A stretch of 34,503 nt of DNA, taken from positions 1-34,503 of the forward strand of contig JACQGE010000004.1 in assembly GCA_016199675.1 (NCBI GenBank), read 5' to 3'. The translations under genes and the position numbers were made by a program. The stretch is from Acidobacteriota bacterium (GTDB lineage: Bacteria; Acidobacteriota; Terriglobia; 2-12-FULL-54-10). The notes beneath the pieces are model-generated. The model did no database searches. It saw only the letters and a program-made list of their open reading frames with translations, and was not told where the DNA came from. Positions 257-30,926 of the stretch are shown piece after piece; the stretch's first letter is position 1; the number at the start of each line of letters is the position of its first letter.

Positions 257-349
257 CCTTGCAATACCCATAAGCGGCGAGTAGGCTTTGCTGCTAGGGG
301 AGGTTTCAATCCACGTATCCGTAGGCCCCCGTGTTACTCAAACGGGGGT
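257..349 (+). promoter_or_regulatory. Structured leader repeat, copy 1
   Basis: Shares CTTGCAATACCCATAA, GAGTAGGCTTT, GGGGAGGTTT and GTATCCGTAGGCCCCCGTGTTAC with 2750-2843; two hairpins (AGCGGC/GCTGCT and CCCCCGT/ACGGGGG); ends 23 nt before the ATG at 373. Confidence 0.75.
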
Positions 350-372
350 GCCGATTGTTGCAGGGAGGCAAC

Positions 373-1704
373 ATGAAGGAATTCAAGACTAGAAAGCTGC
401 GTCTGCAGGACATCTACCTCGACAATGAGAACGCGCGGCACGAACCGATTGACAGCGAGCCCGAGATTATTGCCGAGCTTTTGTCGAAGGGGAAAGTGAA
501 GGCCCTCGCGGCCCACATTGCGAAAACCGAGGCCACAAGCCCATTGGACCGGGTCGGAGTGTTTCCGCATCCAATAGTTAAAAGCGCTTTTGTTGCCGGC
601 GAGGGGAACCGTCGGCTTTGCGCTCTTAAGCTATTAAACGATCCGGACAAAGCGCCCGATTCACACCGCGCCTATTTCCGCAGTTTATCTAATTCGATGT
701 CGGCGAAGCCGAAAGAAATTGAAGCCGTAATTTTCGACGACCGAGCTGCGGTTAGGCCCTGGATAGAGTTGCGCCATGAGGGGCCGCAGAACGGCGTCGG
801 CACCGTCAGCTGGGACCCGAGGGCGAAGGCTCGTCACAATCGAGGTGCTGCAAAGCCGACAAATCCCAATCTACTCGCGGTGTCCGTCGCTGAGTACGCC
901 CATAAGCGCGGACTGATTACGAAATCTGAGCATGACGGCTTAAATGTGACCACCCTCACAAGGTATTTGAGCAACCCCACCTTCCGAAATGTCTTCGGCC
1001 TCGCCTCGCCCAAGGAGCTTTCCATCGTCGTCGATCAAGCCGAATTCGACTCCGCCATTGGACGATTCCTGAAGGACTCGCTCAAGGGTGAAGACGGCGG
1101 GGTCAATTCGCGGAGCAATGCCACTCAGCGAACAAAATATGCGCGCAGACTACAAAAAGAAAAGGTCGCTCCGACTACGTTTTTTGAGGACCCCGTTCCG
1201 CTCGACCCAGCGACAGGAAGTGGGCCGCAGTCCCGTGGCAAAGCTCCTGGAAGAAGGAATAGCAGCAACCCAGACCATCGGCGTCATGTAATCCAGCCGC
1301 CTTTCGCAGCAAAAATAACGAACAAGGTGCTGGCTCGAATTTACTTCGAGCTACGTGAGGTGGATTGTCAGAGCCACCCGCTGGCTGCTGCTTGTCTTCT
1401 CCGTGCAATGATTGAGGTGCTGATAAAGCTTTTTTGTAAACAAGAGGGCATCGGCACCAATGGGATCAAGGTGAACGTCCTCTGCGGGAAGGTCTGCGAC
1501 AAGCTGCTGGCGGACGACCCTACGCTAAGAAAACAGCGCCTTAAGCCCATGCGCATAATGGCAAACGACGAACACGGGCTTGCATCTCACGACACCTTGA
1601 GTTCGTTTATTCACGGCGGCTCTATTCCAGACGGGCGGTACATCAATAGGACGTGGGATTCGATTGAAGATTGTATTGGGCTGATACTGAGCAAGCTTAA
1701 ATAG
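373..1704 (+). CDS. ParB/Srx-like N-terminal domain protein
   Basis: ATG preceded by AGGGAGGCAAC. N-terminal LRLQDIYLDNENAR...VAGEGNRRLCALKLL resembles the ParB/Srx fold; C-terminal region unassigned. Confidence 0.6.
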   Translation: MKEFKTRKLRLQDIYLDNENARHEPIDSEPEIIAELLSKGKVKALAAHIAKTEATSPLDRVGVFPHPIVKSAFVAGEGNRRLCALKLLNDPDKAPDSHRAYFRSLSNSMSAKPKEIEAVIFDDRAAVRPWIELRHEGPQNGVGTVSWDPRAKARHNRGAAKPTNPNLLAVSVAEYAHKRGLITKSEHDGLNVTTLTRYLSNPTFRNVFGLASPKELSIVVDQAEFDSAIGRFLKDSLKGEDGGVNSRSNATQRTKYARRLQKEKVAPTTFFEDPVPLDPATGSGPQSRGKAPGRRNSSNPDHRRHVIQPPFAAKITNKVLARIYFELREVDCQSHPLAAACLLRAMIEVLIKLFCKQEGIGTNGIKVNVLCGKVCDKLLADDPTLRKQRLKPMRIMANDEHGLASHDTLSSFIHGGSIPDGRYINRTWDSIEDCIGLILSKLK

Positions 1705-1762: not shown

Positions 1763-2665
1763 ATGCCCGTCACTGACTCCCCTCTCCGATATCCCGGGGG
1801 AAAGAGCCAGCTTGCCCCCCTAGTCATCGATATCCTGCGCTCGAACAGGTTGCTTTATGGCATCTATGTTGAGCCCTTCGCAGGCGGCTCTGGACTTGCG
1901 TTGAAGCTGCTCCTCAACAGCCTTGTGAGCGAGATATACATAAACGACATCGACCGCTCGATCTACGCCCTGTGGCATAGCGTGCTCAATTCGACCGATG
2001 AGCTGTGCGCACGCGTGGGAAAAGCCAAGGTCCACATAACTGAATGGCGCAGGCAACGGGCTGTCCAGGACGCTCGATATTCCACATTGCTGGACCTGGG
2101 GTTCTCGACCCTGTTCATGAATAGGACAAATCACTCAGGCATTATCCGTGGAGGCGTGATAGGCGGTTTCGATCAAAATGGGCCATACAAAATTGATTGT
2201 CGATTCCGCAAAGGGGAATTGATAAGAAAAATAGAACGGATTTCTAAGTACAAGCCAGGGATACACCTTAGCCGAATGGATGCACTTCAATTCCTGACCA
2301 AGGTAGTTGCCAAGAAGGTCCAAGGACCAGCGCTGGTGAACCTCGACCCTCCTTACATAAGAAAGGGACCCGAGCTTTATCAGAATCACTACACGATGGA
2401 CGACCATGCCCGCCTTGCTAAGGCGGTCCGAGGGATCAAGCAATACTGGATGGTGACCTACGATGACACGCCTGAGGCAAGAGCCCTATATGTTGATTTC
2501 CCGTCGTTCACGCAGGAACTGAAGTACACCGCCCAGATTAAGAGGGTCGGCGTTGAACTGCTAGTCCTAGACCCGAGGCTTGATCTGCCGAGATCATTGA
2601 GCCAAGTTCAGCGCTTGGCGGCCTGCAAAGGGAAGGCCCGCGGAGAGGGTAGGCGGGATCTGTGA
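1763..2665 (+). CDS. DNA adenine methylase, D12 class
   Basis: LRYPGGKSQLAPL, FAGGSGLALKLL and NLDPPYIRKGPELY motifs. Confidence 0.9.
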   Translation: MPVTDSPLRYPGGKSQLAPLVIDILRSNRLLYGIYVEPFAGGSGLALKLLLNSLVSEIYINDIDRSIYALWHSVLNSTDELCARVGKAKVHITEWRRQRAVQDARYSTLLDLGFSTLFMNRTNHSGIIRGGVIGGFDQNGPYKIDCRFRKGELIRKIERISKYKPGIHLSRMDALQFLTKVVAKKVQGPALVNLDPPYIRKGPELYQNHYTMDDHARLAKAVRGIKQYWMVTYDDTPEARALYVDFPSFTQELKYTAQIKRVGVELLVLDPRLDLPRSLSQVQRLAACKGKARGEGRRDL

Positions 2666-8786: not shown

Positions 8787-8996
8787 ATGAGCGAGCAACA
8801 GACGCCGACCGTTTCGCCGTTGATCCAGTCGCTCCTCCCGGACGCGACCGTCGAGGAGCAACTGGAGGCACAGCAGAATTTCCGCGAGTTCTTGGCGGTG
8901 GCGTACCGCATGCACCTGCGGCTGCAGGCCGAAAAGGAAGCCTCGCGTGACAAAAAGACGGAGGGTGATACGGTAAACGACGCGCCAACGGTATGA
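8787..8996 (+). CDS. Small protein coupled to serine recombinase
   Basis: MSEQQTPTVSPLIQSLLPDATVEEQLEAQQNF...; stop overlaps recombinase ATG (ATGA). Confidence 0.55.
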   Translation: MSEQQTPTVSPLIQSLLPDATVEEQLEAQQNFREFLAVAYRMHLRLQAEKEASRDKKTEGDTVNDAPTV

Positions 8997-10570
8997 ACAG
9001 CTATTACGCGTATGTCCGTGTTTCCACGGTCAAACAGGGAGAAAAGGGTTCCTCGCTTCAAGAGCAGCGAGGCGCCATTGAAGCGTATGCCAAAAGAAAC
9101 GATCTGACCGTCGCGGAGTGGTTCGAAGAGACAGAAACGGCTGCCAAGCGCGGGCGCCGCGTCTTCAATCACATGCTCAAACTTCTCGAGAAGAACCGCG
9201 CCGCCGGCGTCATCATTCACAAGATCGACCGCAGCGCTCGGAACCTGAAGGACTGGGCGGATCTGGGGGAAATGATCGACCGCGGGGTGGAAGTGCACTT
9301 CGCCCACGAAAGCTTGGATCTGCATTCCCGGGGCGGGCGTCTTTCTGCTGACATCCAGGCGGTGGTGGCTGCCGACTACATCCGGAATCTCCGGGACGAG
9401 GTGCGGAAGGGGTTCAACGGTCGGCTCAAGCAAGGAATCTATCCGTTGCCGGCGCCGCTTGGATACAAGGACCAAGGCTCGGGACTACCCAAAACCCCGG
9501 ACCCCGTGATGGGCCCCTTGGTGCGGCGCGCCTTTGAGATATACGCGACCGGGCGCTCCAATCTGCACGCGCTCAGAGCACAACTCCACGCCTTGGGATT
9601 GCGGAATCGTCGGGGGCGGGCCGTGTCTCTAGCCGGACTTTCCTGGGTCCTGAACAACCCCTTCTACATCGGCCTCATACGCATTAAACGGACCGGCGAG
9701 ACGTATCCTGGCATACACCAACCCCTGATCTCGAAACAGCTCTTTGACCGGGTGCAGGCGATTCTCCACGGCCGGACCAAGAACCGGGGACTCAAATACG
9801 ACTTCGTGTTTCGGCGTTTCCTCCGCTGTGCGACCTGCGGGTACCGGCTGATCGGCAGCCTGCAAAAAGGACGCGTGTACTACCGTTGCCAAACGAGAAC
9901 CTGCCCGACCACCTGTTTGCGGGAGGACGCGGTCGCCGAACAACTGGACCGAGCTATCGCGGAACTCAACCTGGATTCGCTCGACATTGACCTACTCAAG
10001 CAGGAATGCGCGTTCGTGACCAAGGATATTGCCGGCAGCCGAGAGCAGGACGTGAAGGCACTTCAGCTTAGCGTCTCGCAGATCGACGATCGGGTCCTGC
10101 GACTAACCGACGCGTACATAGATCGGCTCATCGACAAAGAGCTGTTTGAAACTCGCAAGGCGAAGCTCTTGGAGGAGCGAATAGCCATCCAGGAGAAAAT
10201 CGCCGAGTTCTCCCAGGGCGACTCCTACCTCGACGCAAAGCTCACGGAATTCCTCGAACTCATAAGATCGTTGGCGGGCAAGGAGAATCCGGCGAATCTG
10301 GAGGAGAAGAGGGAATTCGCAAAATCAGCCACCTCGAACTTGGCGGTTGATCAAAAAACCCTTGTGTATGCTTGGCGACCGCCGTTCGATGCGTTCGCCA
10401 ACTGGCAAGAATCGCTATATGGTGCGCCGCATCGGGGCGCATCTCGAACTTTCCATAAGAAAAGCACGGCGTGCGGGAAGACGCAAGCCCGCAAACCTTG
10501 CTCTGTCTGTGCAAGTTATCACCGCTTGGCGAGAATAATTATGAGTGTTCTAGGGGATGACAAAGAGTAA
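8993..10570 (+). CDS. Large serine recombinase
   Basis: N-terminal YYAYVRVSTVKQGEKGSSLQEQ and IIHKIDRSARNLKDW; recombinase domain; zinc ribbon CATCGYRL...YYRCQTRTC. Confidence 0.92.
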   Translation: MNSYYAYVRVSTVKQGEKGSSLQEQRGAIEAYAKRNDLTVAEWFEETETAAKRGRRVFNHMLKLLEKNRAAGVIIHKIDRSARNLKDWADLGEMIDRGVEVHFAHESLDLHSRGGRLSADIQAVVAADYIRNLRDEVRKGFNGRLKQGIYPLPAPLGYKDQGSGLPKTPDPVMGPLVRRAFEIYATGRSNLHALRAQLHALGLRNRRGRAVSLAGLSWVLNNPFYIGLIRIKRTGETYPGIHQPLISKQLFDRVQAILHGRTKNRGLKYDFVFRRFLRCATCGYRLIGSLQKGRVYYRCQTRTCPTTCLREDAVAEQLDRAIAELNLDSLDIDLLKQECAFVTKDIAGSREQDVKALQLSVSQIDDRVLRLTDAYIDRLIDKELFETRKAKLLEERIAIQEKIAEFSQGDSYLDAKLTEFLELIRSLAGKENPANLEEKREFAKSATSNLAVDQKTLVYAWRPPFDAFANWQESLYGAPHRGASRTFHKKSTACGKTQARKPCSVCASYHRLARIIMSVLGDDKE

Positions 10571-10649: not shown

Positions 10650-11153
10650 TCACGCATAAGTGCTTGGGAGAGACGGGGTCCTGCTTTTGATGTAATGGAA
10701 TAACTCTTGACGCCAAGCGCAAATAAAATGGTGGGCTTCGCCGATACCTTCTTCGCAAAGAAGCTCTAAGGTTTCTTCATCCAAAATATCGCCTTCAGGA
10801 TTGGAGAACCATCTCGCGAGTGTTTCGGCCATCAAAACGTCCTCGCTGCGTGTTGCACCCAGTAGTACAGAGCAATATGCATTGAGAAACAACAGGTGGT
10901 ATTGAGGGAATCGGGAAAACATCTGACCTATTTCACTATTTCGTGGCCACAGTGCATCCAGCTTGGCCTTTATCTCTCTCACGGATCGGGGATCGCCGAT
11001 GGCATCGCAGAATGTACCTCCAATCGCCTTCAGGAGAAGACGAAATCCCAAGCCATACAACAGGAGCTGCTTCTCGTCCGCAGGCAACAGACTATAGTAG
11101 CCAGATAGCAATTGCTCAGAATTGAACTCATCAAGCGTGTGGACTTCGTCCAT
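10650..11153 (-). CDS. Hypothetical protein
   Basis: 167-aa ORF with no recognised family. Confidence 0.45.
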   Translation of the reverse strand: MDEVHTLDEFNSEQLLSGYYSLLPADEKQLLLYGLGFRLLLKAIGGTFCDAIGDPRSVREIKAKLDALWPRNSEIGQMFSRFPQYHLLFLNAYCSVLLGATRSEDVLMAETLARWFSNPEGDILDEETLELLCEEGIGEAHHFICAWRQELFHYIKSRTPSLPSTYA

Positions 11154-11423: not shown

Positions 11424-11558
11424 ATCGTGACGAGGCTACAACCATCGTAGGTGCGTATTTCAGCCCATCGTAGACGGCCATTTCAAAGGATCGTAGACGG
11501 CATTTCAGGCTGATCGTAGACAGCGTTTCAAGCTGATCGTGGACGATCGCGGGGGTGC
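11424..11558. repeat. Degenerate 23-bp tandem repeats
   Basis: ATCGTAG-starting units at 11444, 11467, 11490 and 11513 at exact 23-bp spacing, with partial units at 11424 and 11536. Confidence 0.8.
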
Positions 11559-11766: not shown

Positions 11767-11976
11767 ATGGTCGAAGAGCACAAGGCAGAGATCTATGATC
11801 TTGAAAGTTCGCAGGCCGCTGATCTTGCATGCCCCGGTTGTTCCATCACCCCGACCGGACCGGCCACGAATATTCATCGCCCAGTCTTATATGACTTAGA
11901 ATTAGCTCAAGCGGGAGATTTGGCCTGTCCGGGGTGTTCTATTACCCCCGCTCCCAACACTGCGCAAACGTCCTAG
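11767..11976 (+). CDS. Candidate RiPP precursor with two internal repeats
   Basis: ATG after CGGGAGGCAGAAA; YDLESSQAADLACPGCSITP and YDLELAQAGDLACPGCSITP, with mostly synonymous codon differences across ACPGCSITP. Confidence 0.7.
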   Translation: MVEEHKAEIYDLESSQAADLACPGCSITPTGPATNIHRPVLYDLELAQAGDLACPGCSITPAPNTAQTS

Positions 11977-12021: not shown

Positions 12022-12150
12022 GTGCGAGTGAAGGTAGGTATTCTGTGCTGCGAGCGACCCAGCATGGGTCTTTTGCAGCTATGCACAACAAGCGACCAAA
12101 AGGGAGAGCGAAATATAAACACCGATTTGTTTAGCGTACTGTACACGTAG
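12022..12150 (+). CDS. Possible small ORF (GTG start)
   Basis: CTAGGAGGA before GTG; 42 aa MRVKVGILCCERPSMGLLQLCTTSDQKGERNINTDLFSVLYT. Confidence 0.3.
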   Translation: MRVKVGILCCERPSMGLLQLCTTSDQKGERNINTDLFSVLYT

Positions 12151-12431
12151 TGCATGATTTCATAATCATGGAATATTAGCCTGGTCAGTCGCTCTCCGAA
12201 AAACACCTCAATAGTCGCGTTTGGGCTTTGGTCCAACGTTCGTATCTATTAGCACATTATCTTAGACGCGATCTAAATAGCCTCTAACGGTCCTTTACTT
12301 CTGACCCAATATTTGTGCTCCAAAAGAGGGATAAGCGTCGCCGAATCCTCACGGCAGGGCGTTACACCTAATCGTGAAAAGAGGTGGGGCCAGTCTCGTG
12401 TTCAGCCAGTTCCCATAAATGTACCGCATAT

Positions 12432-13634
12432 ATGAATTACTACCTCGTTAACATCGACACTGGCCACCTAGTTGGATGTAACCTGATCGCCGCTTCGTTT
12501 ATTCGAGAGTGGATTAAAGGAGGCGTGGAAGGCGATCGCGAGATTTTTGCAGAAATGGCGCGGCGGGGATTTTCAAGACGTAATACTCGAATTATCGCCG
12601 AGTGCTACGAAAATGGCACACCAACTATCCTTGCCGCGCAACTTAATCTAACGTGGAAATGCAATTTAAAATGCAAGCATTGCTACGTTGGCAATAATAT
12701 GCTTCTGGCGCCACCTCTAGCCTTTGACGAGTGGGTTTGCATAATCCAGGAACTAAAAAATCTGAATGTTCCGCGTATAGCCTTCCTTGGGGGCGAGCCA
12801 ATTCTCTTTAAGTACTTCTTCGATCTCTCTCAGGTTGCACGAGATCAGGGATTCAAAATCTTGACGTCAACAAACGGCACACAGATTGATCGACAAACTG
12901 CACGGTCGATAAAGCAAGCGGGTTACACGGAGGTCGATGTATCCTTGGATGGCGGGCTGCCCAGCACGCATGAGGCTCTACGTGGATACGGTACGTTCCG
13001 GAAGACCCTTCAAGGCATTCGCTTTCTCTTGGAGGAGAGTCTAAGCGTCAAGACCGCAACGGTTCTGCATAAAAGCAATTTTAGAGAGGTTCTAGAAATA
13101 GCGAAGATTGCTGAGCAAATGGGGGTTGAGCACTGCTTCTTCAACAATCTAGTCCCTGGCGGGCACGGAGCGGACCTTTGGCGTTCCGAACGGTTAGATA
13201 CGGCGGAACTCGAGGAGGTAAAACGAGTAGTGTTTCGATGGAATCAATTGCACGAGCAGCCGCGGCTTTTTATGGAGCTGCATTTTGACTATAAGATCCT
13301 CGACCGAAAGTTGCTAACGGTTCCGTCATCCTACGCGGGTTGTAAGGCCGGCCGAAGAGAAATCCTAATTCGGCCAGATGGATATGTCGCACCATGCCCA
13401 TTATTCCTGACAAACCCGGTAGTGCTGAAATCCAATGTCCGGGACATGTCTATTCTTGATATTTGGTCCAAGGATTCTGCGATACTGCAATTCCGGCGAG
13501 CGAATGACGAAGCCAACCTGAAGGGAAAATGTTCGAATTGTGGCTTCAAGTCTTTGTGTAAGGGGGGATGCCATGCAGCTGCATATCACGATTCGCACGA
13601 TTTATGTAACCCCGACCCAAGGTGTCCACAGTAG
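12432..13634 (+). CDS. Radical SAM/SPASM peptide-modifying enzyme
   Basis: CNLKCKHCY (CxxxCxxC); SPASM-type C-terminal cysteines (CKAGRREILIRPDGYVAPCPL...CSNCGFKSLCKGGC...CNPDPRC). Confidence 0.9.
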   Translation: MNYYLVNIDTGHLVGCNLIAASFIREWIKGGVEGDREIFAEMARRGFSRRNTRIIAECYENGTPTILAAQLNLTWKCNLKCKHCYVGNNMLLAPPLAFDEWVCIIQELKNLNVPRIAFLGGEPILFKYFFDLSQVARDQGFKILTSTNGTQIDRQTARSIKQAGYTEVDVSLDGGLPSTHEALRGYGTFRKTLQGIRFLLEESLSVKTATVLHKSNFREVLEIAKIAEQMGVEHCFFNNLVPGGHGADLWRSERLDTAELEEVKRVVFRWNQLHEQPRLFMELHFDYKILDRKLLTVPSSYAGCKAGRREILIRPDGYVAPCPLFLTNPVVLKSNVRDMSILDIWSKDSAILQFRRANDEANLKGKCSNCGFKSLCKGGCHAAAYHDSHDLCNPDPRCPQ

Positions 13635-13646
13635 CGTCGGCAGCTG

Positions 13647-14366
13647 ATGTTGCGGGCCGCGGACTTACTTCTTCAATATCCACGGCCAGATAACATTCGC
13701 AATTGCGAGCACGTAATGGTGCTTGCACCTCATCCTGACGACGACATCATAGGCGCCGGTGGGGTAATTGCACTGCATCTCGCAGCTGGGGCCAACCTAA
13801 CTGTCGTCTACTTGACTGACGGGGAAGCGACAGTAGCCCTACGTGGGTCACCTCAATGCGCAAGAAGAACTGTAAGACTGCGAGAAGCAAGAACCGCTCT
13901 TGCAAAACTGGGGACTGCCAAAACCGAATGTTTACACCTGGAAGATGGTCGCTTAAATAGTGCACTGACAGCCCTTAGTTGCCAGGTAGCCTTTCTTCTC
14001 GACACATACAAACCACAAATTATTTACTTACCATTTTTTGGAGACGCCCACCCTGACCACCGCGCCGTTACGTGGGCGTTGAGCCGTATCAAATGGACTG
14101 CGCAATCGGACGTAACAGTCGCGTGCTACGAAATCTGGTCTCCTCAACCCGCGAACATAATTGTGGACATAACCGATGTTGCAGCAAAGAAGTTTGCAGC
14201 GTTAATGGAACATAGGACGGCATTAACATCTCTGAATTATCTACCCTACGTTAAATCCCTAAACCGATACCGGGCTATGCACCGAGATTCGTGGCGTTAT
14301 GCGGAGGCTTTTCTTGTTCTTGCGTTGAAAGAATATATTTGTCTCGCACGGCAATGTCATCCTTGA
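13647..14366 (+). CDS. PIG-L/LmbE-family deacetylase
   Basis: VMVLAPHPDDDIIGAGG and GDAHPDHRAV metal-binding motifs. Confidence 0.92.
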   Translation: MLRAADLLLQYPRPDNIRNCEHVMVLAPHPDDDIIGAGGVIALHLAAGANLTVVYLTDGEATVALRGSPQCARRTVRLREARTALAKLGTAKTECLHLEDGRLNSALTALSCQVAFLLDTYKPQIIYLPFFGDAHPDHRAVTWALSRIKWTAQSDVTVACYEIWSPQPANIIVDITDVAAKKFAALMEHRTALTSLNYLPYVKSLNRYRAMHRDSWRYAEAFLVLALKEYICLARQCHP

Positions 14367-15505
14367 ATCTATTGATGTGGCCGAATTTCTTCTTCCCAAA
14401 GACTGGGGGCGTTGCAACTGTTGTGTACAATCTTGCGCACCAGCTCCGCTATTACGATATTCACACTTCTGTTGTAACAGAGACGTTTAGAGATGCTCCC
14501 GCTATGGAGCGTGGGTCTTGGGGTGGAGCAGTCTTTAGAATCCCCTTTATGGTCCCGGAAGCTGAACTGGGTGATGCTGCTAACCGCTACATGTCTCCGC
14601 TAAGGCGGATCATTGTTGACGAATCTATCGACCTCGTGCACGTACATCTGCTAGATATACAAGGCTACTATGCGAATGTGCTTCTCAAAGAGGTAAAGAT
14701 TCCCTTAGTAGTATCAATTCATGGATCGGACATATTCCACTTCCACCGTAAGAACCGCTTTCTCCAGGAACAGGCGATAAGTCTTCTTGAAAAGGCACAG
14801 CTCGTCATTTCTTGCTCGGCTGCCCTCGCGCAGGAATTGGAAGCGATTATGGCTGACGCGCGTGCGAGTAATCCGAACATAGCGGTTATCCCAAACGGAA
14901 TTAATATTTCATGCTTATCGTACGCGGTTGAATCAGCGGCTCGGCCACGACCTGGAGGTCCAATTCGCGTGCTCGGGATTGGCCGCCTCGATTGGGTAAA
15001 GGGATTCGACATTCTTGTACAAGCTGTTTATCTAATAAAAGAAGAGAGGACCATCCCCAAGCTTGCCGTTCAGATTGTCGGGGATGGAGAAGAGCGGGAA
15101 CCGTTGCAGCGCATGGTGCAAGAACTCGGATTAGTGGACTGTATTGGATTTAATGGTGAATGTCCAAATGATCTTATCCCACGGTTCCTCCAGACAGCGG
15201 ATATGTTGGTAGTCCCTTCCCGGACAGAAGGATTTGGAATCGTAGTATTAGAGGGCATGTGTGCCGGGCTACCAATAGTGGCGAGCGCAACTGGTGGAAT
15301 TCCGGAGATAATAACGCATGGCAGGCACGGCTGGCTTGTTCCGCCTGAGAATCCCCGGGCTTTGGCCGAAGCCCTACTCAGCGCGATTCGGGATAGGGCA
15401 AGGTGGCCGGACTATGCAATGCAAAACAGAAATGACGTGCGTCGTTACGACTGGCGCCACATTTCGGCTCGGTATGCGAAAACTTATAGAGATCTTCTAG
15501 TGTGA
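14354..15505 (+). CDS. GT4-family glycosyltransferase
   Basis: N-terminal FFPKTGGVATVVYNLA; C-terminal VPSRTEGFGIVVLEGMCAGLPIVASATGGIPEII. Confidence 0.92.
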   Translation: MSSLNLLMWPNFFFPKTGGVATVVYNLAHQLRYYDIHTSVVTETFRDAPAMERGSWGGAVFRIPFMVPEAELGDAANRYMSPLRRIIVDESIDLVHVHLLDIQGYYANVLLKEVKIPLVVSIHGSDIFHFHRKNRFLQEQAISLLEKAQLVISCSAALAQELEAIMADARASNPNIAVIPNGINISCLSYAVESAARPRPGGPIRVLGIGRLDWVKGFDILVQAVYLIKEERTIPKLAVQIVGDGEEREPLQRMVQELGLVDCIGFNGECPNDLIPRFLQTADMLVVPSRTEGFGIVVLEGMCAGLPIVASATGGIPEIITHGRHGWLVPPENPRALAEALLSAIRDRARWPDYAMQNRNDVRRYDWRHISARYAKTYRDLLV

Positions 15506-15513
15506 GATGGACG

Positions 15514-17004
15514 CTAATGTGAGCGGGCAATGTAAACCAGCTCAGTTGCTTCGTTCCCGCTCACAATACATTTTCGATTACGTGGTCGTTCCGCGTCTTG
15601 GAATGCAACTCCGCATACGTAGGCCCCGCGGGTCTTCTCCTGCAGTATTTTGCCATATTGCTCTCCGTCTGCACCAATGCTACAGAAGGGCACTCGGACA
15701 AACCCCCCCGCACTGTCAAGGATAGCGATAGCAGCATCCAGCGTTTCAGCATCATGAATCTTGTCTGCAAAGTAGGTGCCTGCGCTATCTTCTAAGTGGA
15801 CGTCAAGGTTCCGGGACGCAGTTGCTATTGCCTCCACGAGATTCGAATCCGCGACCTCCACCTTACCCGGTAACACACGGATATTGATTACTGCACTACC
15901 TTTGTCAATATCCCGTCGGCCAATCTCTATGCGTAAAGGTACTCCTTTCATTTCCCATTCATTGAACTTGAATCCAGGAGTTCTATCCGTTGCATCAATG
16001 AAAGGCCGATAGTTTGCGGCACGAAGGCTCTCTTCTACGGCAGCACATTTGGCCAAAATATTGGAATTCACGGCCACGTCACTCGATAGGATGGGGATGA
16101 TTACGATCTGGATGGGGGCTACGTCAAAGGGTAAGACAAGTCCCTTGTCGTCTCCGTGAATGCCGATCAACGCAGCCATAATCCTCCAGATACCGGGCCC
16201 GAAGCAATTCTGGTAGACGTACCGCTCTACGCCGGCTGGGTCCGAGAATTTAATACCGAAAGGCTTTGCGAACCGTTGACCTAGATCATGTGTGCTGGAT
16301 ATCTGGTTACGTTTCCCGTCGGGCATTATCGTATCCGCGACGTAGGTGTCCTCAGCACCTTTAAACTTATCCCATTGCGGTCTCTTTAGGAAAAGATGAG
16401 GAATTTTTAGTTTCCCCCAAATAACCTTGCGCATTGTCTCCATGTCGTGGGTGATTTCTGTCATCACTTGCTCATGGGAGGCAAAACAGTTGTGCGTCTC
16501 GAAGAACAGAAACTCCCTGCCGCGAAGAAAGGGCCTTGTGGAAAGTTCATAGCGAAACACCGTGTGCCGGGACTGATATCTTCTAAACGGAAGCTGACTG
16601 TGGGATCGTATCCAACGAGCGTACATTGGGTAGAATTGCGTCTCCCCGGTAGGCCGCAAAGCCAGTCTTTCCTCAATCTTTTTGGTTCCCGCAGCTTCGA
16701 CCCAGAACACTTCCGGGGTGAACCCGGCGTGCTCCTTTTCTAACGTAAGATATTGTTCCCGAATTAAAGTGGGGAAGATTACTGGCTCGTGGCCTCTATC
16801 TTCTACTTCCTTTTCGAGCCACTGGTAAATCGATCGTATTATGCGAACGGCGTTCGGAAGATGAACCAGTAACCCACCAACTCCATAATTCACGTCCACC
16901 AACTCCGCGCCGGTGAGACCGCAGACTTGCGAATACCACTCCGAAAAGTTCTCCGCTTTTGGAGTGCGAATACCAATTGCCTTATTTTTCTTTTCGCGAG
17001 TCAT
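15514..17004 (-). CDS. proS: Archaeal/eukaryotic-type prolyl-tRNA synthetase
   Basis: ALRPTGETQFYPMYARWIRSHSQLPFRRYQ, VFRYELSTRPFLRGREFLFFETHNCFA, C-terminal Cys-containing domain ending VYIARSH. Confidence 0.85.
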   Translation of the reverse strand: MTREKKNKAIGIRTPKAENFSEWYSQVCGLTGAELVDVNYGVGGLLVHLPNAVRIIRSIYQWLEKEVEDRGHEPVIFPTLIREQYLTLEKEHAGFTPEVFWVEAAGTKKIEERLALRPTGETQFYPMYARWIRSHSQLPFRRYQSRHTVFRYELSTRPFLRGREFLFFETHNCFASHEQVMTEITHDMETMRKVIWGKLKIPHLFLKRPQWDKFKGAEDTYVADTIMPDGKRNQISSTHDLGQRFAKPFGIKFSDPAGVERYVYQNCFGPGIWRIMAALIGIHGDDKGLVLPFDVAPIQIVIIPILSSDVAVNSNILAKCAAVEESLRAANYRPFIDATDRTPGFKFNEWEMKGVPLRIEIGRRDIDKGSAVINIRVLPGKVEVADSNLVEAIATASRNLDVHLEDSAGTYFADKIHDAETLDAAIAILDSAGGFVRVPFCSIGADGEQYGKILQEKTRGAYVCGVAFQDAERPRNRKCIVSGNEATELVYIARSH

Positions 17005-17410: not shown

Positions 17411-17974
17411 TCACTTTGCAAGCATCGGATTCAGAGCAAAGTAGTCGCAACGAATAACTATCTCGGTCCGAGAATTTATGGAAATGTCCGAATTTCCTAG
17501 GGCACCCACAAGTTTGCTTAGACGTGCAGAAGAAATTCGACACCTTCCCCTTCCGAGTATCGAGCCACCGGCGTCAATGACCGTTACGACGTCACCCTCG
17601 GAAAATAACCCACGGACATTCTCAACTCCTATTACCAATATCGAGACTGCCCGCCCATTTCGGAGATTATCAGCGAGAAAAGTACTTACTTCCAACTCGC
17701 CCTTACTCGCTGCCGCGAGGGCTATCCAGCTCTTCATCTGGCCGAGGCGTTGCCCTCGCGGCTTAACTCTAGTTACTGTTCCTTCGTTTTCCATGAATGG
17801 AGATTCATTTTCGGCATTGCCGGTGCCTACAACCATTTCAATTCCAAACCCCGATAACAGCCGGGCAGCATTAAACTTTGCAACAATTCCCGCAGACTTT
17901 GACACAACAATGGAATCCATGTCACTAATAGTTCCGAGCCTACAGTAATTGAGATCCGTCGCAGGATCGACCAT
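17411..17974 (-). pseudogene. Glutamate 5-kinase C-terminal part plus PUA-like domain, lacking most of the kinase domain
   Basis: VSKSAGIVAKFNAARLLSGFGIEMVVGTG...RGQRLGQMKSWIALAAASKGELEV...GLFSEGDVVTVIDAGGSILGRG matches the ProB C-terminal pattern; in-frame TGA shortly upstream. Confidence 0.55.
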
Positions 17975-27878: not shown

Positions 27879-28114
27879 TGACGTAAATTAACGTAGCAAG
27901 AACGAGGAGGGAGGTGCGTATGAAAGCCAAATGAAAACGGGCAAACCCCGAAGGAGCTTGCCCGTAGTGAACGCGGTACAAGGACCACGTCCGGTTTGGC
28001 GACTGACAGTATCCCTGGACCCCGCTCCTGCTGTCAAGCCCTTCGGCAGAGATGCGCGCACTGTTCCTCAGACTGTACGCGAAGCGATATCCATCTTTTA
28101 CAAGGGCAATACAG

Positions 28115-28426
28115 ATGACAGCAGAAAAACCGGCCGCGGCGCCGCACGCCGCACCTGACCTCATCAACGTTCAAGTCCGCTATCCGGCGGCGCCGAGGCC
28201 ATTCATTGACCCGAAGGCGCAGGCGGCGGAGACACTCGGACAGCTCAAGTCACGGGTGCTCGCCGCCTTCGAAGTGGCTGAAACGCAGGGACCGGAGCAG
28301 CAGGTCTTGTTCTTCTTCTACCACGAGAACGAGCGTCTTGACGATCTTACTCGGACACTCGGTCAAATAGCGGGAGAAGACCGGGTGCTCAAGTTGAAAC
28401 TTGTCCAGCAAATCGTGCAGGGGTAG
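28115..28426 (+). CDS. Prokaryotic ubiquitin-like protein with C-terminal Gly
   Basis: INVQVRYPAAPRPFIDPKAQAAETLGQLKSRVLAAFEV...VLFFFYHENERLDDLTRTLGQIAGEDRVLKLKLVQQIVQG; beta-grasp pattern. Confidence 0.75.
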   Translation: MTAEKPAAAPHAAPDLINVQVRYPAAPRPFIDPKAQAAETLGQLKSRVLAAFEVAETQGPEQQVLFFFYHENERLDDLTRTLGQIAGEDRVLKLKLVQQIVQG

Positions 28427-28429
28427 GTC

Positions 28430-28867
28430 ATGGCCGACGATCTCGCCGTGCTCTGCTTTGAGGCAGATCTTGAAGAGATCGTGGCCGCGCCCGAGTCGGC
28501 GCGATGGACCCTCAAGCGGGGTGACCCGCTTGAGGTTTTTGCCACCATGTCTCCTAGTCGTGCGCCCGGTGAGCAGTTCCAGGTGCGACTCCTCTATCGT
28601 GAATACCCTGGTCTCCCGTCACTAAGATTTCGAGACCCCGCCACGGGAAGGCTCGACAACGCACGCGCGTGGCCGCAATGCCCAGGTTTCCGTCCGCAAT
28701 CACTCGACACCTGCGTGAGCTGGACTGCCGAAGGTCACGCGCTCCATCCGGAGTGGGGCAACGCACCCGCGACGCGGCTGAACCGGACCGGCAACGTGCT
28801 ATTTCGCTCCCTTTGCATATTGCAGGACACGTTGGATTTCGGCTTTACCGGGAGGTATGGAGGATGA
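28430..28867 (+). CDS. E2-like / predicted CEHH metal-binding partner of the Ubl system
   Basis: Position between Ubl and JAB; DTCVSWTAEGHALHPEW contains a C..E.H..H arrangement. Confidence 0.55.
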   Translation: MADDLAVLCFEADLEEIVAAPESARWTLKRGDPLEVFATMSPSRAPGEQFQVRLLYREYPGLPSLRFRDPATGRLDNARAWPQCPGFRPQSLDTCVSWTAEGHALHPEWGNAPATRLNRTGNVLFRSLCILQDTLDFGFTGRYGG

Positions 28868-29391
28868 GCCTCTATGAAAAGATCAAGCACTGGCGGATGC
28901 CGACCAATACGCTCTCCGCGTCTCTTCAGGCGATGGCGCCTGACGGCCTTCGCGGAAACGAAGGCATCGTGATGTGGCTAGGTCGGTCCGCGAGCAACGT
29001 AGCTACGATCACGCATCTCGTCACTTTCGCGGAGCATCTCTTGCGCAAGCGGCCGGATTTCCTGGAAATCCCGCCGAGTACGATGAGCAGGTTGACGGAC
29101 TTGGCGGAAACGCTGGAGGTCTCGCTCATCGGACAGATTCATTCGCATCCGGGCACCTTCATCGACCTCTCTATACCCGATCGGCGCTATGGGATTTCTG
29201 CGCCGTATTACCTCTCAGTTGTTGCGCCGCATTACGCACAGCGCCCTGACACCGATTGGCGCGACTGCGGGGTTCATCAGTTCATTCCGCGCGCCGGATT
29301 TCGACGAGTATCCAACGTCGAGGTGCGCTGGCGTATTGAACGGCTCCCGTTTGCCAATGCAACGTCAATTTCCTTGGGAGAAGAAGCATGA
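28864..29391 (+). CDS. JAB/JAMM metallopeptidase (DUB-like)
   Basis: NEGIVMWLG and QIHSHPGTFIDLSIPD (HxHx7SxxD). Confidence 0.85.
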   Translation: MSLYEKIKHWRMPTNTLSASLQAMAPDGLRGNEGIVMWLGRSASNVATITHLVTFAEHLLRKRPDFLEIPPSTMSRLTDLAETLEVSLIGQIHSHPGTFIDLSIPDRRYGISAPYYLSVVAPHYAQRPDTDWRDCGVHQFIPRAGFRRVSNVEVRWRIERLPFANATSISLGEEA

Positions 29392-30926
29392 TCGATCAAG
29401 ACCTCGCGTACAGCCGCCCGCGGGCGACGGCCGCTCGACTTGCGGCTTACGCGGCAGAAGCGCACCGATTTACTGAAAAGACAGTGCTTCTCACTGGTGA
29501 TGCGGAGACGCTGGCGACAAGTAACGGCACGCTTTGCCTGCTTGACGCTCTTCGCCTCCTCCTTCGGACCGTCAAGCACCTCCACGTCCATGTTCCGCCG
29601 CAGTGTTCGGCGTTGTTGGCCTCTGTTGAAGCGCTCGCGTGCAAGCTCGAATTTGGGACCCCTATCGTGTTCCTTGAGGACATACCGCAGTGGCAACGTT
29701 GCGACGCCATCCTTAGCGTAGGCTGGCGTGTGCGACCGGAACTGCCCTGGACCGCAGTCAACTCGAATGGATGGGTTGCTCGTGTGTCATCAGGGAGCGC
29801 GTTACTCCCGCCCGAATGCGATCAGCACAATCCGGTCGGAGCGCTCGGCGCTGCGTCATTTGGCGTCTCGGAGGTATTTAAGCGGCTCGTCGGTCTGCGT
29901 CCAGAGCGCGGCAGCATGTTCGACCGCATGCAGTTCTCGTTCTACGACTACAGCGTTGATCCGAGCAATCTCGGTCCAATCTTGCTACCTGAACTCCATC
30001 TCCCACCGACGCTCCTTGCCGGCGGCGGCGCGATCGGTAACGGTATTGCACTGCTTGTTAGTCAATTCAACCTGATTGGAAAGATTTGGGTGCTCGATCG
30101 CCAGGCTTTTGGTCCGGAGAACCTCGGCACGTGCGTCATGCTTGGGCCGAATGGGGTTGAGTCTTTGAAGGCCGAATACCTTTCCGCAGAACTCTGTGAC
30201 CCCGGCCGGCTTCACGCTATTCCGCTGACCGGCGAGATTGCGGCGGTGAAGCATGCATTTGGACGAACTGTGCCTTTCCCCGTCCTGGTGCTGGCCGGGT
30301 TCGACAACGTTTCTGCCCGCCATCGCCTGCAGGAGCTTTGGCCGGATTGGCTGATTGACGGCGGTATCAGCGATTTCGGCGTTCAAGTTTCTGCCCACTA
30401 CTGGGGTAGGTCGGTAGGGTGCCTAAAGTGTCAGTTCGTTGAAGAGGTGCATACTGATCACACTACGCTTGCTGCCGAATTGACCGGTCTAAGGCCCGAG
30501 CGGCTTGCATCGCCGGAAGACGTCATCAGGTCAGAGGACGTGGAAGCGGCACCATCGGAGCGCCGCGAGCAACTGCAGCGAAATGTTGGCAAAAAGATTT
30601 GTTCGGTCGTGAGCGAAGCGGCGATAAAGTCGATAAGCTCCGCTGGGGCGCGGAATAGATTCTCTCCTTCCGTGCCATTTGTGGCATGCGCCAGCGCGGC
30701 TCTCGTCTTCAGCAAGGCTCTCAGGCTACTGCTGGAGGGCCGTGATGACGCGCCGCCTCGGTTTGTGTTCGACATCCTCACCGGGCCGGCAGGCGGGGTA
30801 GAACTCTTTGAAAAAGCAAAGGCTACGTGCGATTGCGTGCGGCGGGCATCGATTATCGAGCGCTGGCGCCAGGAAAGGCTATTGGCTCCCGCTGACAACC
30901 TCACGCTATCGGACCAGTTGCTATGA
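29388..30926 (+). CDS. E1-like ThiF-family enzyme
   Basis: LLAGGGAIGNGIALLVSQFNLIGKIWVLDRQAFGPENLGT; CLKC. Confidence 0.85.
   Translation: MIDQDLAYSRPRATAARLAAYAAEAHRFTEKTVLLTGDAETLATSNGTLCLLDALRLLLRTVKHLHVHVPPQCSALLASVEALACKLEFGTPIVFLEDIPQWQRCDAILSVGWRVRPELPWTAVNSNGWVARVSSGSALLPPECDQHNPVGALGAASFGVSEVFKRLVGLRPERGSMFDRMQFSFYDYSVDPSNLGPILLPELHLPPTLLAGGGAIGNGIALLVSQFNLIGKIWVLDRQAFGPENLGTCVMLGPNGVESLKAEYLSAELCDPGRLHAIPLTGEIAAVKHAFGRTVPFPVLVLAGFDNVSARHRLQELWPDWLIDGGISDFGVQVSAHYWGRSVGCLKCQFVEEVHTDHTTLAAELTGLRPERLASPEDVIRSEDVEAAPSERREQLQRNVGKKICSVVSEAAIKSISSAGARNRFSPSVPFVACASAALVFSKALRLLLEGRDDAPPRFVFDILTGPAGGVELFEKAKATCDCVRRASIIERWRQERLLAPADNLTLSDQLL

What the first reader, a model, noticed from the sequence alone, without database searches (positions are those of the whole stretch)
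11794..11949. Precursor peptide with an internally duplicated core under synonymous divergence
YDLESSQAADLACPGCSITP and YDLELAQAGDLACPGCSITP lie 96 bp apart. Across ACPGCSITP, 7 of 9 codons differ and all changes are synonymous (GCA TGC CCC GGT TGT TCC ATC ACC CCG vs GCC TGT CCG GGG TGT TCT ATT ACC CCC). This argues for a translated, selected motif and for two cores per precursor, each with a CxxC pair as candidate modification site.
Basis: seen in the sequence. Interest (0 to 1): 0.82.

Follow-up and report, generated by a model that had tools for sequence, protein, structure and literature searches.

The report
Two-core peptide with archaeal-type immunity candidate
A small bacterial gene encodes a peptide carrying the same nine-residue motif twice, next to enzymes that probably turn it into a modified, sugar-bearing compound and next to a spare archaeal-like enzyme that may protect the producer from it.

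Summary
ORF 11767-11976 (69 aa, GGGAGG before ATG) holds two 20-residue repeats at 11794-11853 and 11890-11949; 17 of 20 residues are identical, 13 codons differ silently, 3 change the residue. Random drift with as many substitutions did not preserve the protein in simulation, so the peptide is almost certainly translated and under purifying selection.

It heads a cassette: radical SAM/SPASM maturase, PIG-L deacetylase, GT4 glycosyltransferase (these three in one compact operon), with a convergent prolyl-tRNA synthetase 9 bp beyond. All lie in a 50% GC segment within 58-60% GC mobile/defence DNA. That ProRS is a second copy: 42-46% identical to Asgard archaeal ProRS, about 32% to the genome's own other copy. 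It keeps catalytic residues but changes several pocket residues.

I read it as an orphan RiPP pathway with two cores per precursor and, less surely, an acquired ProRS as self-resistance, which would make ProRS the product's target. No homologous precursor or close maturase was found in any collection searched, so repeat-number variation is untestable here. Modification chemistry, sugar and target are inferred; a leader-binding domain in the maturase is only weakly suggested.

The parts
11767..11976 (+). Precursor peptide ORF, 69 aa, GGGAGG 6 nt before ATG
   Evidence: no Pfam model at its gathering score and no NCBIfam match
11794..11853 (+). Repeat 1: YDLESSQAADLACPGCSITP
11890..11949 (+). 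Repeat 2: YDLELAQAGDLACPGCSITP
12432..13634 (+). Radical SAM/SPASM maturase, 400 aa from ATG 12432 (the frame is open from a GTG at 12384); CNLKCKHC at residue 77, SPASM cysteine motifs at 304 and 367; first 70 aa possibly a leader-binding domain
   Evidence: PF04055 and PF13186 over cut-off; best NCBIfam is MftC at 162.6 bits, cut-off 265; motifs; N-terminal model
13647..14366 (+). PIG-L/LmbE-type deacetylase with HPDD(D) and HPDH motifs, 12 bp after the maturase
   Evidence: PF02585 94 bits; BshB1 75.4 bits, cut-off 182.5; motifs
14354..15505 (+). GT4 glycosyltransferase, start overlaps the end of the deacetylase gene
   Evidence: PF00534, PF13439; BshA 130 bits, below cut-off; overlap
15514..17004 (-). 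Second prolyl-tRNA synthetase, archaeal-like; candidate self-resistance protein
   Evidence: TIGR00408 444.7 bits, over cut-off 437
17411..17974 (-). C-terminal fragment of a glutamate 5-kinase (ProB) with PUA domain, at the right edge of the low-GC segment; membership in the cassette uncertain
   Evidence: TIGR01027 positions 208-359 only; GC step

Best explanation
A horizontally acquired RiPP cassette. The 69-aa precursor carries two copies of a unit made of a recognition-like stretch (YDLExxQAxDL) and a core (ACPGCSITP), so one translation product yields two cores. The radical SAM/SPASM enzyme modifies the cores; the two cysteines of the C-P-G-C turn and the S-I-T-P tail are the likely sites. 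The GT4 and PIG-L pair probably add and then N-deacetylate an amino sugar, by analogy with other GT4/PIG-L pairs (recalled). The convergent archaeal-like ProRS is most likely the producer's spare, insensitive copy of the target, so the product would inhibit bacterial prolyl-tRNA synthetase. Shown: the peptide, its selection, gene order, a second and archaeal-like ProRS, changed pocket residues. Inferred: that the peptide is the maturase's substrate (about 0.8), two cores (about 0.65), sugar step (about 0.4), ProRS as immunity (about 0.4).
For: Repeat selection; operon order and 13-bp overlap of deacetylase and glycosyltransferase; full radical SAM and SPASM cysteine sets; one low-GC block, 0.50 against 0.58 and 0.60 flanks. 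ProRS: the genome has another, at G000:C187; identity 44.1 and 41.9% to two Lokiarchaeal ProRSs and 32.0% to the own other copy; 128 of 227 genomes in the archaeal sample match at E <= 1e-100, best 46%, 444.9 bits, while the best of 25 relatives reaches 242.6 bits. Of 162 columns conserved in 22 archaeal ProRSs the window differs at 42, including RPTSET to RPTGET, W167F, I168F and S273W near the ATP/proline pocket (pocket placed by motif from passages of PMC9004777). Precedent: AcmD and SbzA, extra aaRS copies inside biosynthetic clusters (passages of PMC12945691); eukaryote-like IleRS with low mupirocin sensitivity in some bacteria (start of abstract of PMC4861432).
Against: No second instance of the cassette exists in the data searched, so the association of ProRS, maturase and precursor rests on one locus. 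Many pocket differences against bacterial ProRS are shared with Asgard enzymes and come from ancestry, not from selection by a drug. No peptidase or exporter was identified in the cassette. A 455-bp spacer separates precursor and maturase. No leader-binding domain is detected by sequence. The ProB fragment next to ProRS suggests the pair may instead be a piece of a donor chromosome.
Confidence: 0.45

Rival explanations
1. RiPP cassette as above, but the ProRS and ProB fragment are unrelated passengers from the donor chromosome; the product and its target are unknown.
For: ProRS is convergent, not in the operon; the ProB piece is truncated at the segment's right edge; archaeal-type ancestry explains many pocket differences.
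Against: Spare aaRS copies are known inside natural-product clusters; this frame is intact over 496 aa and above NCBIfam's ProRS cut-off, and the window-only changes include pocket residues identical in 34 other ProRSs.
Confidence: 0.35
2. The product is a peptide-derived cofactor or thiol rather than an antibiotic: the maturase, a BshA/MshA-like GT and a BshB/MshB-like deacetylase would make a glucosaminylated CPGC peptide, comparable in logic to mycofactocin or bacillithiol.
For: Best profile of the maturase is MftC (162.6 bits), of the deacetylase BshB1 (75.4), of the GT EpsE and BshA (132.5, 130.6).
Against: All are far below the curated cut-offs. The genome has its own BshA at C95 (542.3 bits), so this GT4 is not the bacillithiol enzyme. 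Nothing like mftD or a cofactor-using oxidoreductase was identified in the cassette. A cofactor would not explain a second ProRS.
Confidence: 0.12
3. The ProRS paralog is a biosynthetic enzyme, for instance transferring prolyl groups to the peptide, as IleRS-like SbzA does with isoleucyl groups in its pathway.
For: SbzA precedent (passages of PMC12945691); changed pocket; the core ends in Pro.
Against: The core already encodes its prolines; the conserved catalytic residues are present as for normal charging; the opposite strand does not suit an operonic step.
Confidence: 0.08

Closest known systems
Mycofactocin (mftA-F)
   Same: Small precursor, radical SAM/SPASM maturase (best profile match), glycosyltransferase in the cluster
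   Different: Maturase below the MftC cut-off (162.6 of 265); precursor with a duplicated motif; GT is GT4; no separate MftB-like gene identified beside it
Sactipeptides and ranthipeptides (StsB, PapB, SkfB, CteB-type maturases)
   Same: Cys-bearing core near a SPASM maturase; SkfB is the best solved-structure match by sequence
   Different: Far below the StsB and PapB cut-offs (122.1 of 625; 75 of 340); only two Cys per core, in CPGC; thioether formation untested
Multi-core RiPP precursors (e.g. the multi-core microviridin precursor, PMC5934393; start of abstract seen)
   Same: Several cores in one polypeptide
   Different: Here the recognition-like part seems to be repeated too, and the enzyme is radical SAM
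Clusters with a spare aminoacyl-tRNA synthetase (AcmD, SbzA; passages of PMC12945691)
   Same: Extra aaRS copy beside biosynthetic genes
   Different: Those concern AlaRS and IleRS and nucleoside or sulfonamide products; here ProRS, of archaeal-like ancestry, beside a RiPP-type cassette
Bacillithiol/mycothiol GT4 plus PIG-L pairs (BshA/B, MshA/B)
   Same: GT4 next to a PIG-L deacetylase
   Different: Both below cut-off; the genome has a separate true BshA

Membership tests
RiPP pathway (radical SAM type) | Small precursor ORF with ribosome-binding site and conserved core, near a maturase gene | tested here: met
   maturase. Conservation judged only between the two internal copies
RiPP pathway (radical SAM type) | Peptide actually modified | not testable with these tools
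   needs mass spectrometry
RiPP pathway (radical SAM type) | Leader-binding domain (RRE) in or beside the maturase (common, not universal) | tested here: inconclusive
   No Pfam or NCBIfam match for the N-terminus; hhalign against 4 PqqD/MftB-like sequences, probability 0.3%. Single-sequence model pLDDT 73.6, order beta-beta-alpha-alpha-alpha-beta; lasso-peptide B1 chains (6jx3, 5v1v, 5v1u) among weak hits, E above 1, Z under 3
SPASM-domain radical SAM enzyme | CX3CX2C plus CX9-15GX4C and CX2CX5CX3C (motif forms recalled) | tested here: met
   PF04055 and PF13186 over cut-off
Mycofactocin | MftC equivalog score | tested here: not met
   162.6 bits, cut-off 265
Sactipeptide/ranthipeptide | StsB, SkfB or PapB family score | tested here: not met
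   122.1 of 625, 72.5 of 300, 75 of 340 bits; thioether bonds themselves not testable
Bacillithiol biosynthesis | BshA and BshB equivalog scores | tested here: not met
   130.6 of 273.7 and 75.4 of 182.5 bits; a true BshA lies on another contig, 542.3 bits
Prolyl-tRNA synthetase family I | TIGR00408 score; conserved class II motif residues | tested here: met
   444.7 bits over 437; motif residues kept
aaRS self-resistance copy | Second aaRS gene besides a housekeeping one, at the biosynthetic locus | tested here: met
   assembly 86.6% complete, other copy at C187
aaRS self-resistance copy | Insensitivity to the cluster's product | not testable with these tools
   needs product and enzyme assays

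The most novel reading that the evidence does not exclude
A new class of radical-SAM, sugar-decorated RiPP that inhibits prolyl-tRNA synthetase, made two at a time from a tandem recognition-plus-core precursor, with immunity conferred by a horizontally acquired archaeal-type ProRS carried on the same mobile segment.
Probability: 0.27. Interest if true: 0.85.

Novelty: new variant of a known kind. Interest (0 to 1): 0.6.

Why it matters
If right, it would add a RiPP whose target is named by its own gene neighbourhood: bacterial prolyl-tRNA synthetase. My searches listed no paper that joins ProRS with RiPP self-resistance (openly licensed PMC papers only, judged from titles and abstract starts). 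It would also show an archaeal-type aaRS used as an immunity gene in a bacterium. The tandem recognition-plus-core design is directly testable with four or five genes.

Tried and rejected
Homolog searches that led nowhere. Precursor by protein: 72 of 101 genomes gave something at E <= 1, but apart from the window itself the best was 0.0033 over part of the query, which I treat as noise. Nothing in plasmids or phages. Viral contigs by pattern: 16 stretches, none precursor-like when translated; by peptide patterns, 14 stretches, none confirmed. Maturase: 2 of 101 relatives at E <= 1e-30, the window's own and one at 29%; 3 of 396 in the phylum sample at E <= 1e-40, own and two at 32-33%; genome contigs gave 3 distant Lokiarchaeal loci, 26-32%; viral contigs none; 22 of 227 archaeal genomes at E <= 1e-35, best 38%, whose 4-kb locus showed a long radical SAM gene and no CPGC peptide in its ORF list of 60 aa and more. 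Plasmid matches to the maturase: 79 records, all under 60% identity, 27-29% in the 40 rows shown, mycofactocin or unrelated where I looked.

My first idea, that the ProRS pocket differences as a whole show selection for resistance, was partly withdrawn: FRGREF, the one-residue longer GPAI-R loop and (in several) LPF are shared with Asgard ProRS. What remains window-only is listed in the report. No enrichment test was made.

The full-length maturase model was poor (pLDDT 43.5) and was not used. No Rfam family, tRNA, promoter-like or terminator-like site was found near the cassette; the 455-nt spacer folds little better than shuffles (z -1.15). The viperin match of the maturase is superfamily-level and was rejected, as the protein has a SPASM domain.

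Full report
What is there. The peptide is MVEEHKAEI-[YDLESSQAADLACPGCSITP]-TGPATNIHRPVL-[YDLELAQAGDLACPGCSITP]-APNTAQTS. Thirteen of 20 codon pairs differ silently, three change the residue and four are identical; third positions carry 15 of 21 differences. Random substitution at this density did not keep the residues in hundreds of thousands of draws, apart from 2 of 169,190 for the core alone, and no other frame shows the likeness. So this is a coding duplication, old enough for synonymous saturation and held by selection on the protein. The selection covers the YDL...DL stretch as well as ACPGCSITP.

The cassette. After a 455-bp spacer come a radical SAM/SPASM enzyme (ATG 12432), a PIG-L deacetylase 12 bp on, and a GT4 glycosyltransferase overlapping the deacetylase. 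The radical SAM protein has CNLKCKHC and both SPASM cysteine motifs. Its best NCBIfam model is MftC at 162.6 bits against a cut-off of 265, and it falls below the cut-off of each of the 25 models shown, of 78 matched, so it could be filed under none of those named maturase families. The deacetylase keeps HPDD and HPDH. The genome has its own high-scoring BshA (542.3 bits, contig C95), so the GT4 at 130 bits is not the host's bacillithiol enzyme.

The neighbour that changes the picture. Nine bases beyond the GT stop, on the other strand, ends an intact prolyl-tRNA synthetase (15514-17004; TIGR00408 444.7 bits, cut-off 437). The genome has another ProRS on contig C187. The window copy is 32.0% identical to it but 44.1 and 41.9% to two Lokiarchaeal ProRSs; in a 227-genome sample of that archaeal phylum 128 match at E <= 1e-100, best 46%. 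Among solved structures the two best by sequence are 1nj1 and 1nj8, which I recall as methanogen enzymes. I aligned the window copy with 22 archaeal ProRSs (the two and the 20 best-scoring loci, out of 128 genomes with a match) and 12 bacterial ones (11 relatives plus the own C187 copy, out of 14 long family I matches). The window keeps FRYE, FLRxREF, GDD and the loop arginine, yet departs at residues found in all 34 others: S120G in RPTSET, W167F in motif 2, G277A, and V93A with a one-residue deletion in the HVEGF loop; further differences at archaeal-conserved columns are I168F, T266N, A271G and S273W. In Toxoplasma ProRS the matching motif-2 loop, TTR loop and HFG loop touch ATP-site and halofuginone-site ligands (passages of PMC9004777; the residue matching is mine). 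Several other differences from bacterial ProRS are simply archaeal and do not count.

Setting. GC is 0.50 from about 10.6 to 18.0 kb against 0.58 and 0.60 on either side. To the left lies a large serine recombinase (8993-10570), to the right RadC and TraD-like genes, with PD-Lambda-5-like and Bil-like genes further out. At the segment's right edge stands the C-terminal part of a glutamate 5-kinase (17411-17974). No full ProB reached the cut-off in this 86.6% complete assembly. Two proline-related genes side by side may be a hint or a coincidence.

How it most likely works. The precursor is made; the maturase recognises a repeated element and modifies two cores; the sugar enzymes may decorate them; processing and export are left to host proteins, as I identified none in the cassette. 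The spare ProRS most simply protects the producer. Extra aaRS copies in natural-product clusters have that role, sometimes a biosynthetic one too (AcmD, SbzA; passages of PMC12945691), and eukaryote-like IleRS copies in some bacteria show low mupirocin sensitivity (start of abstract of PMC4861432). This step is inference from position, copy number and pocket changes at one locus.

A leader-binding domain. The maturase's first 70 residues match nothing by profile. A single-sequence model is fair (pLDDT 73.6, pTM 0.60) with two strands, three helices and a strand. Three lasso-peptide B1 entries bound to leaders are among the weak hits, but so are unrelated proteins, and none is significant. I count this inconclusive.

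Limits. No second cassette was found, and metagenome scanning was not available, so dN/dS across strains, repeat-number variation and gene co-occurrence could not be measured.

Verdict. I file it as a new variant of radical-SAM RiPP clusters, outside the named families tested, with a plausible and testable target in ProRS.

Noticed in passing
331-1704 (+), 1763-2665 (+): PD-Lambda-5_A-like defence protein (504.6 bits in PADLOC) next to a D12-class DNA adenine methyltransferase.
   Followed up: partly
28052-30926 (+): BilC-like (34.4 bits) and BilD-like (61.1 bits) proteins preceded by two small ORFs without family matches; perhaps a ubiquitin-like conjugation defence operon.
   Followed up: partly
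12022-12150 (+): 42-codon GTG ORF with AGGAGG just upstream, in the spacer between precursor and maturase; no family match. It may be a second small peptide or a gene remnant.
   Followed up: partly
11457-11545: 23-bp tandem array, 3.9 copies, about 220 bp upstream of the precursor; possibly the end of an insertion element.
   Followed up: no
17411-17974 (-): Truncated glutamate 5-kinase (C-terminal part and PUA domain) at the right edge of the low-GC segment; no full ProB over cut-off in the assembly.
   Followed up: partly
10650-11153 (-): 167-aa ORF in the low-GC part with no Pfam, NCBIfam or PHROGs match.
   Followed up: no
L022:1138-2496: In a relative (G021) a radical SAM/SPASM gene whose N-terminus looks PqqD-like by eye follows a subtilase-like ORF with a Cys-Pro-rich tail; perhaps another uncharted peptide-maturation pair.
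   Followed up: no
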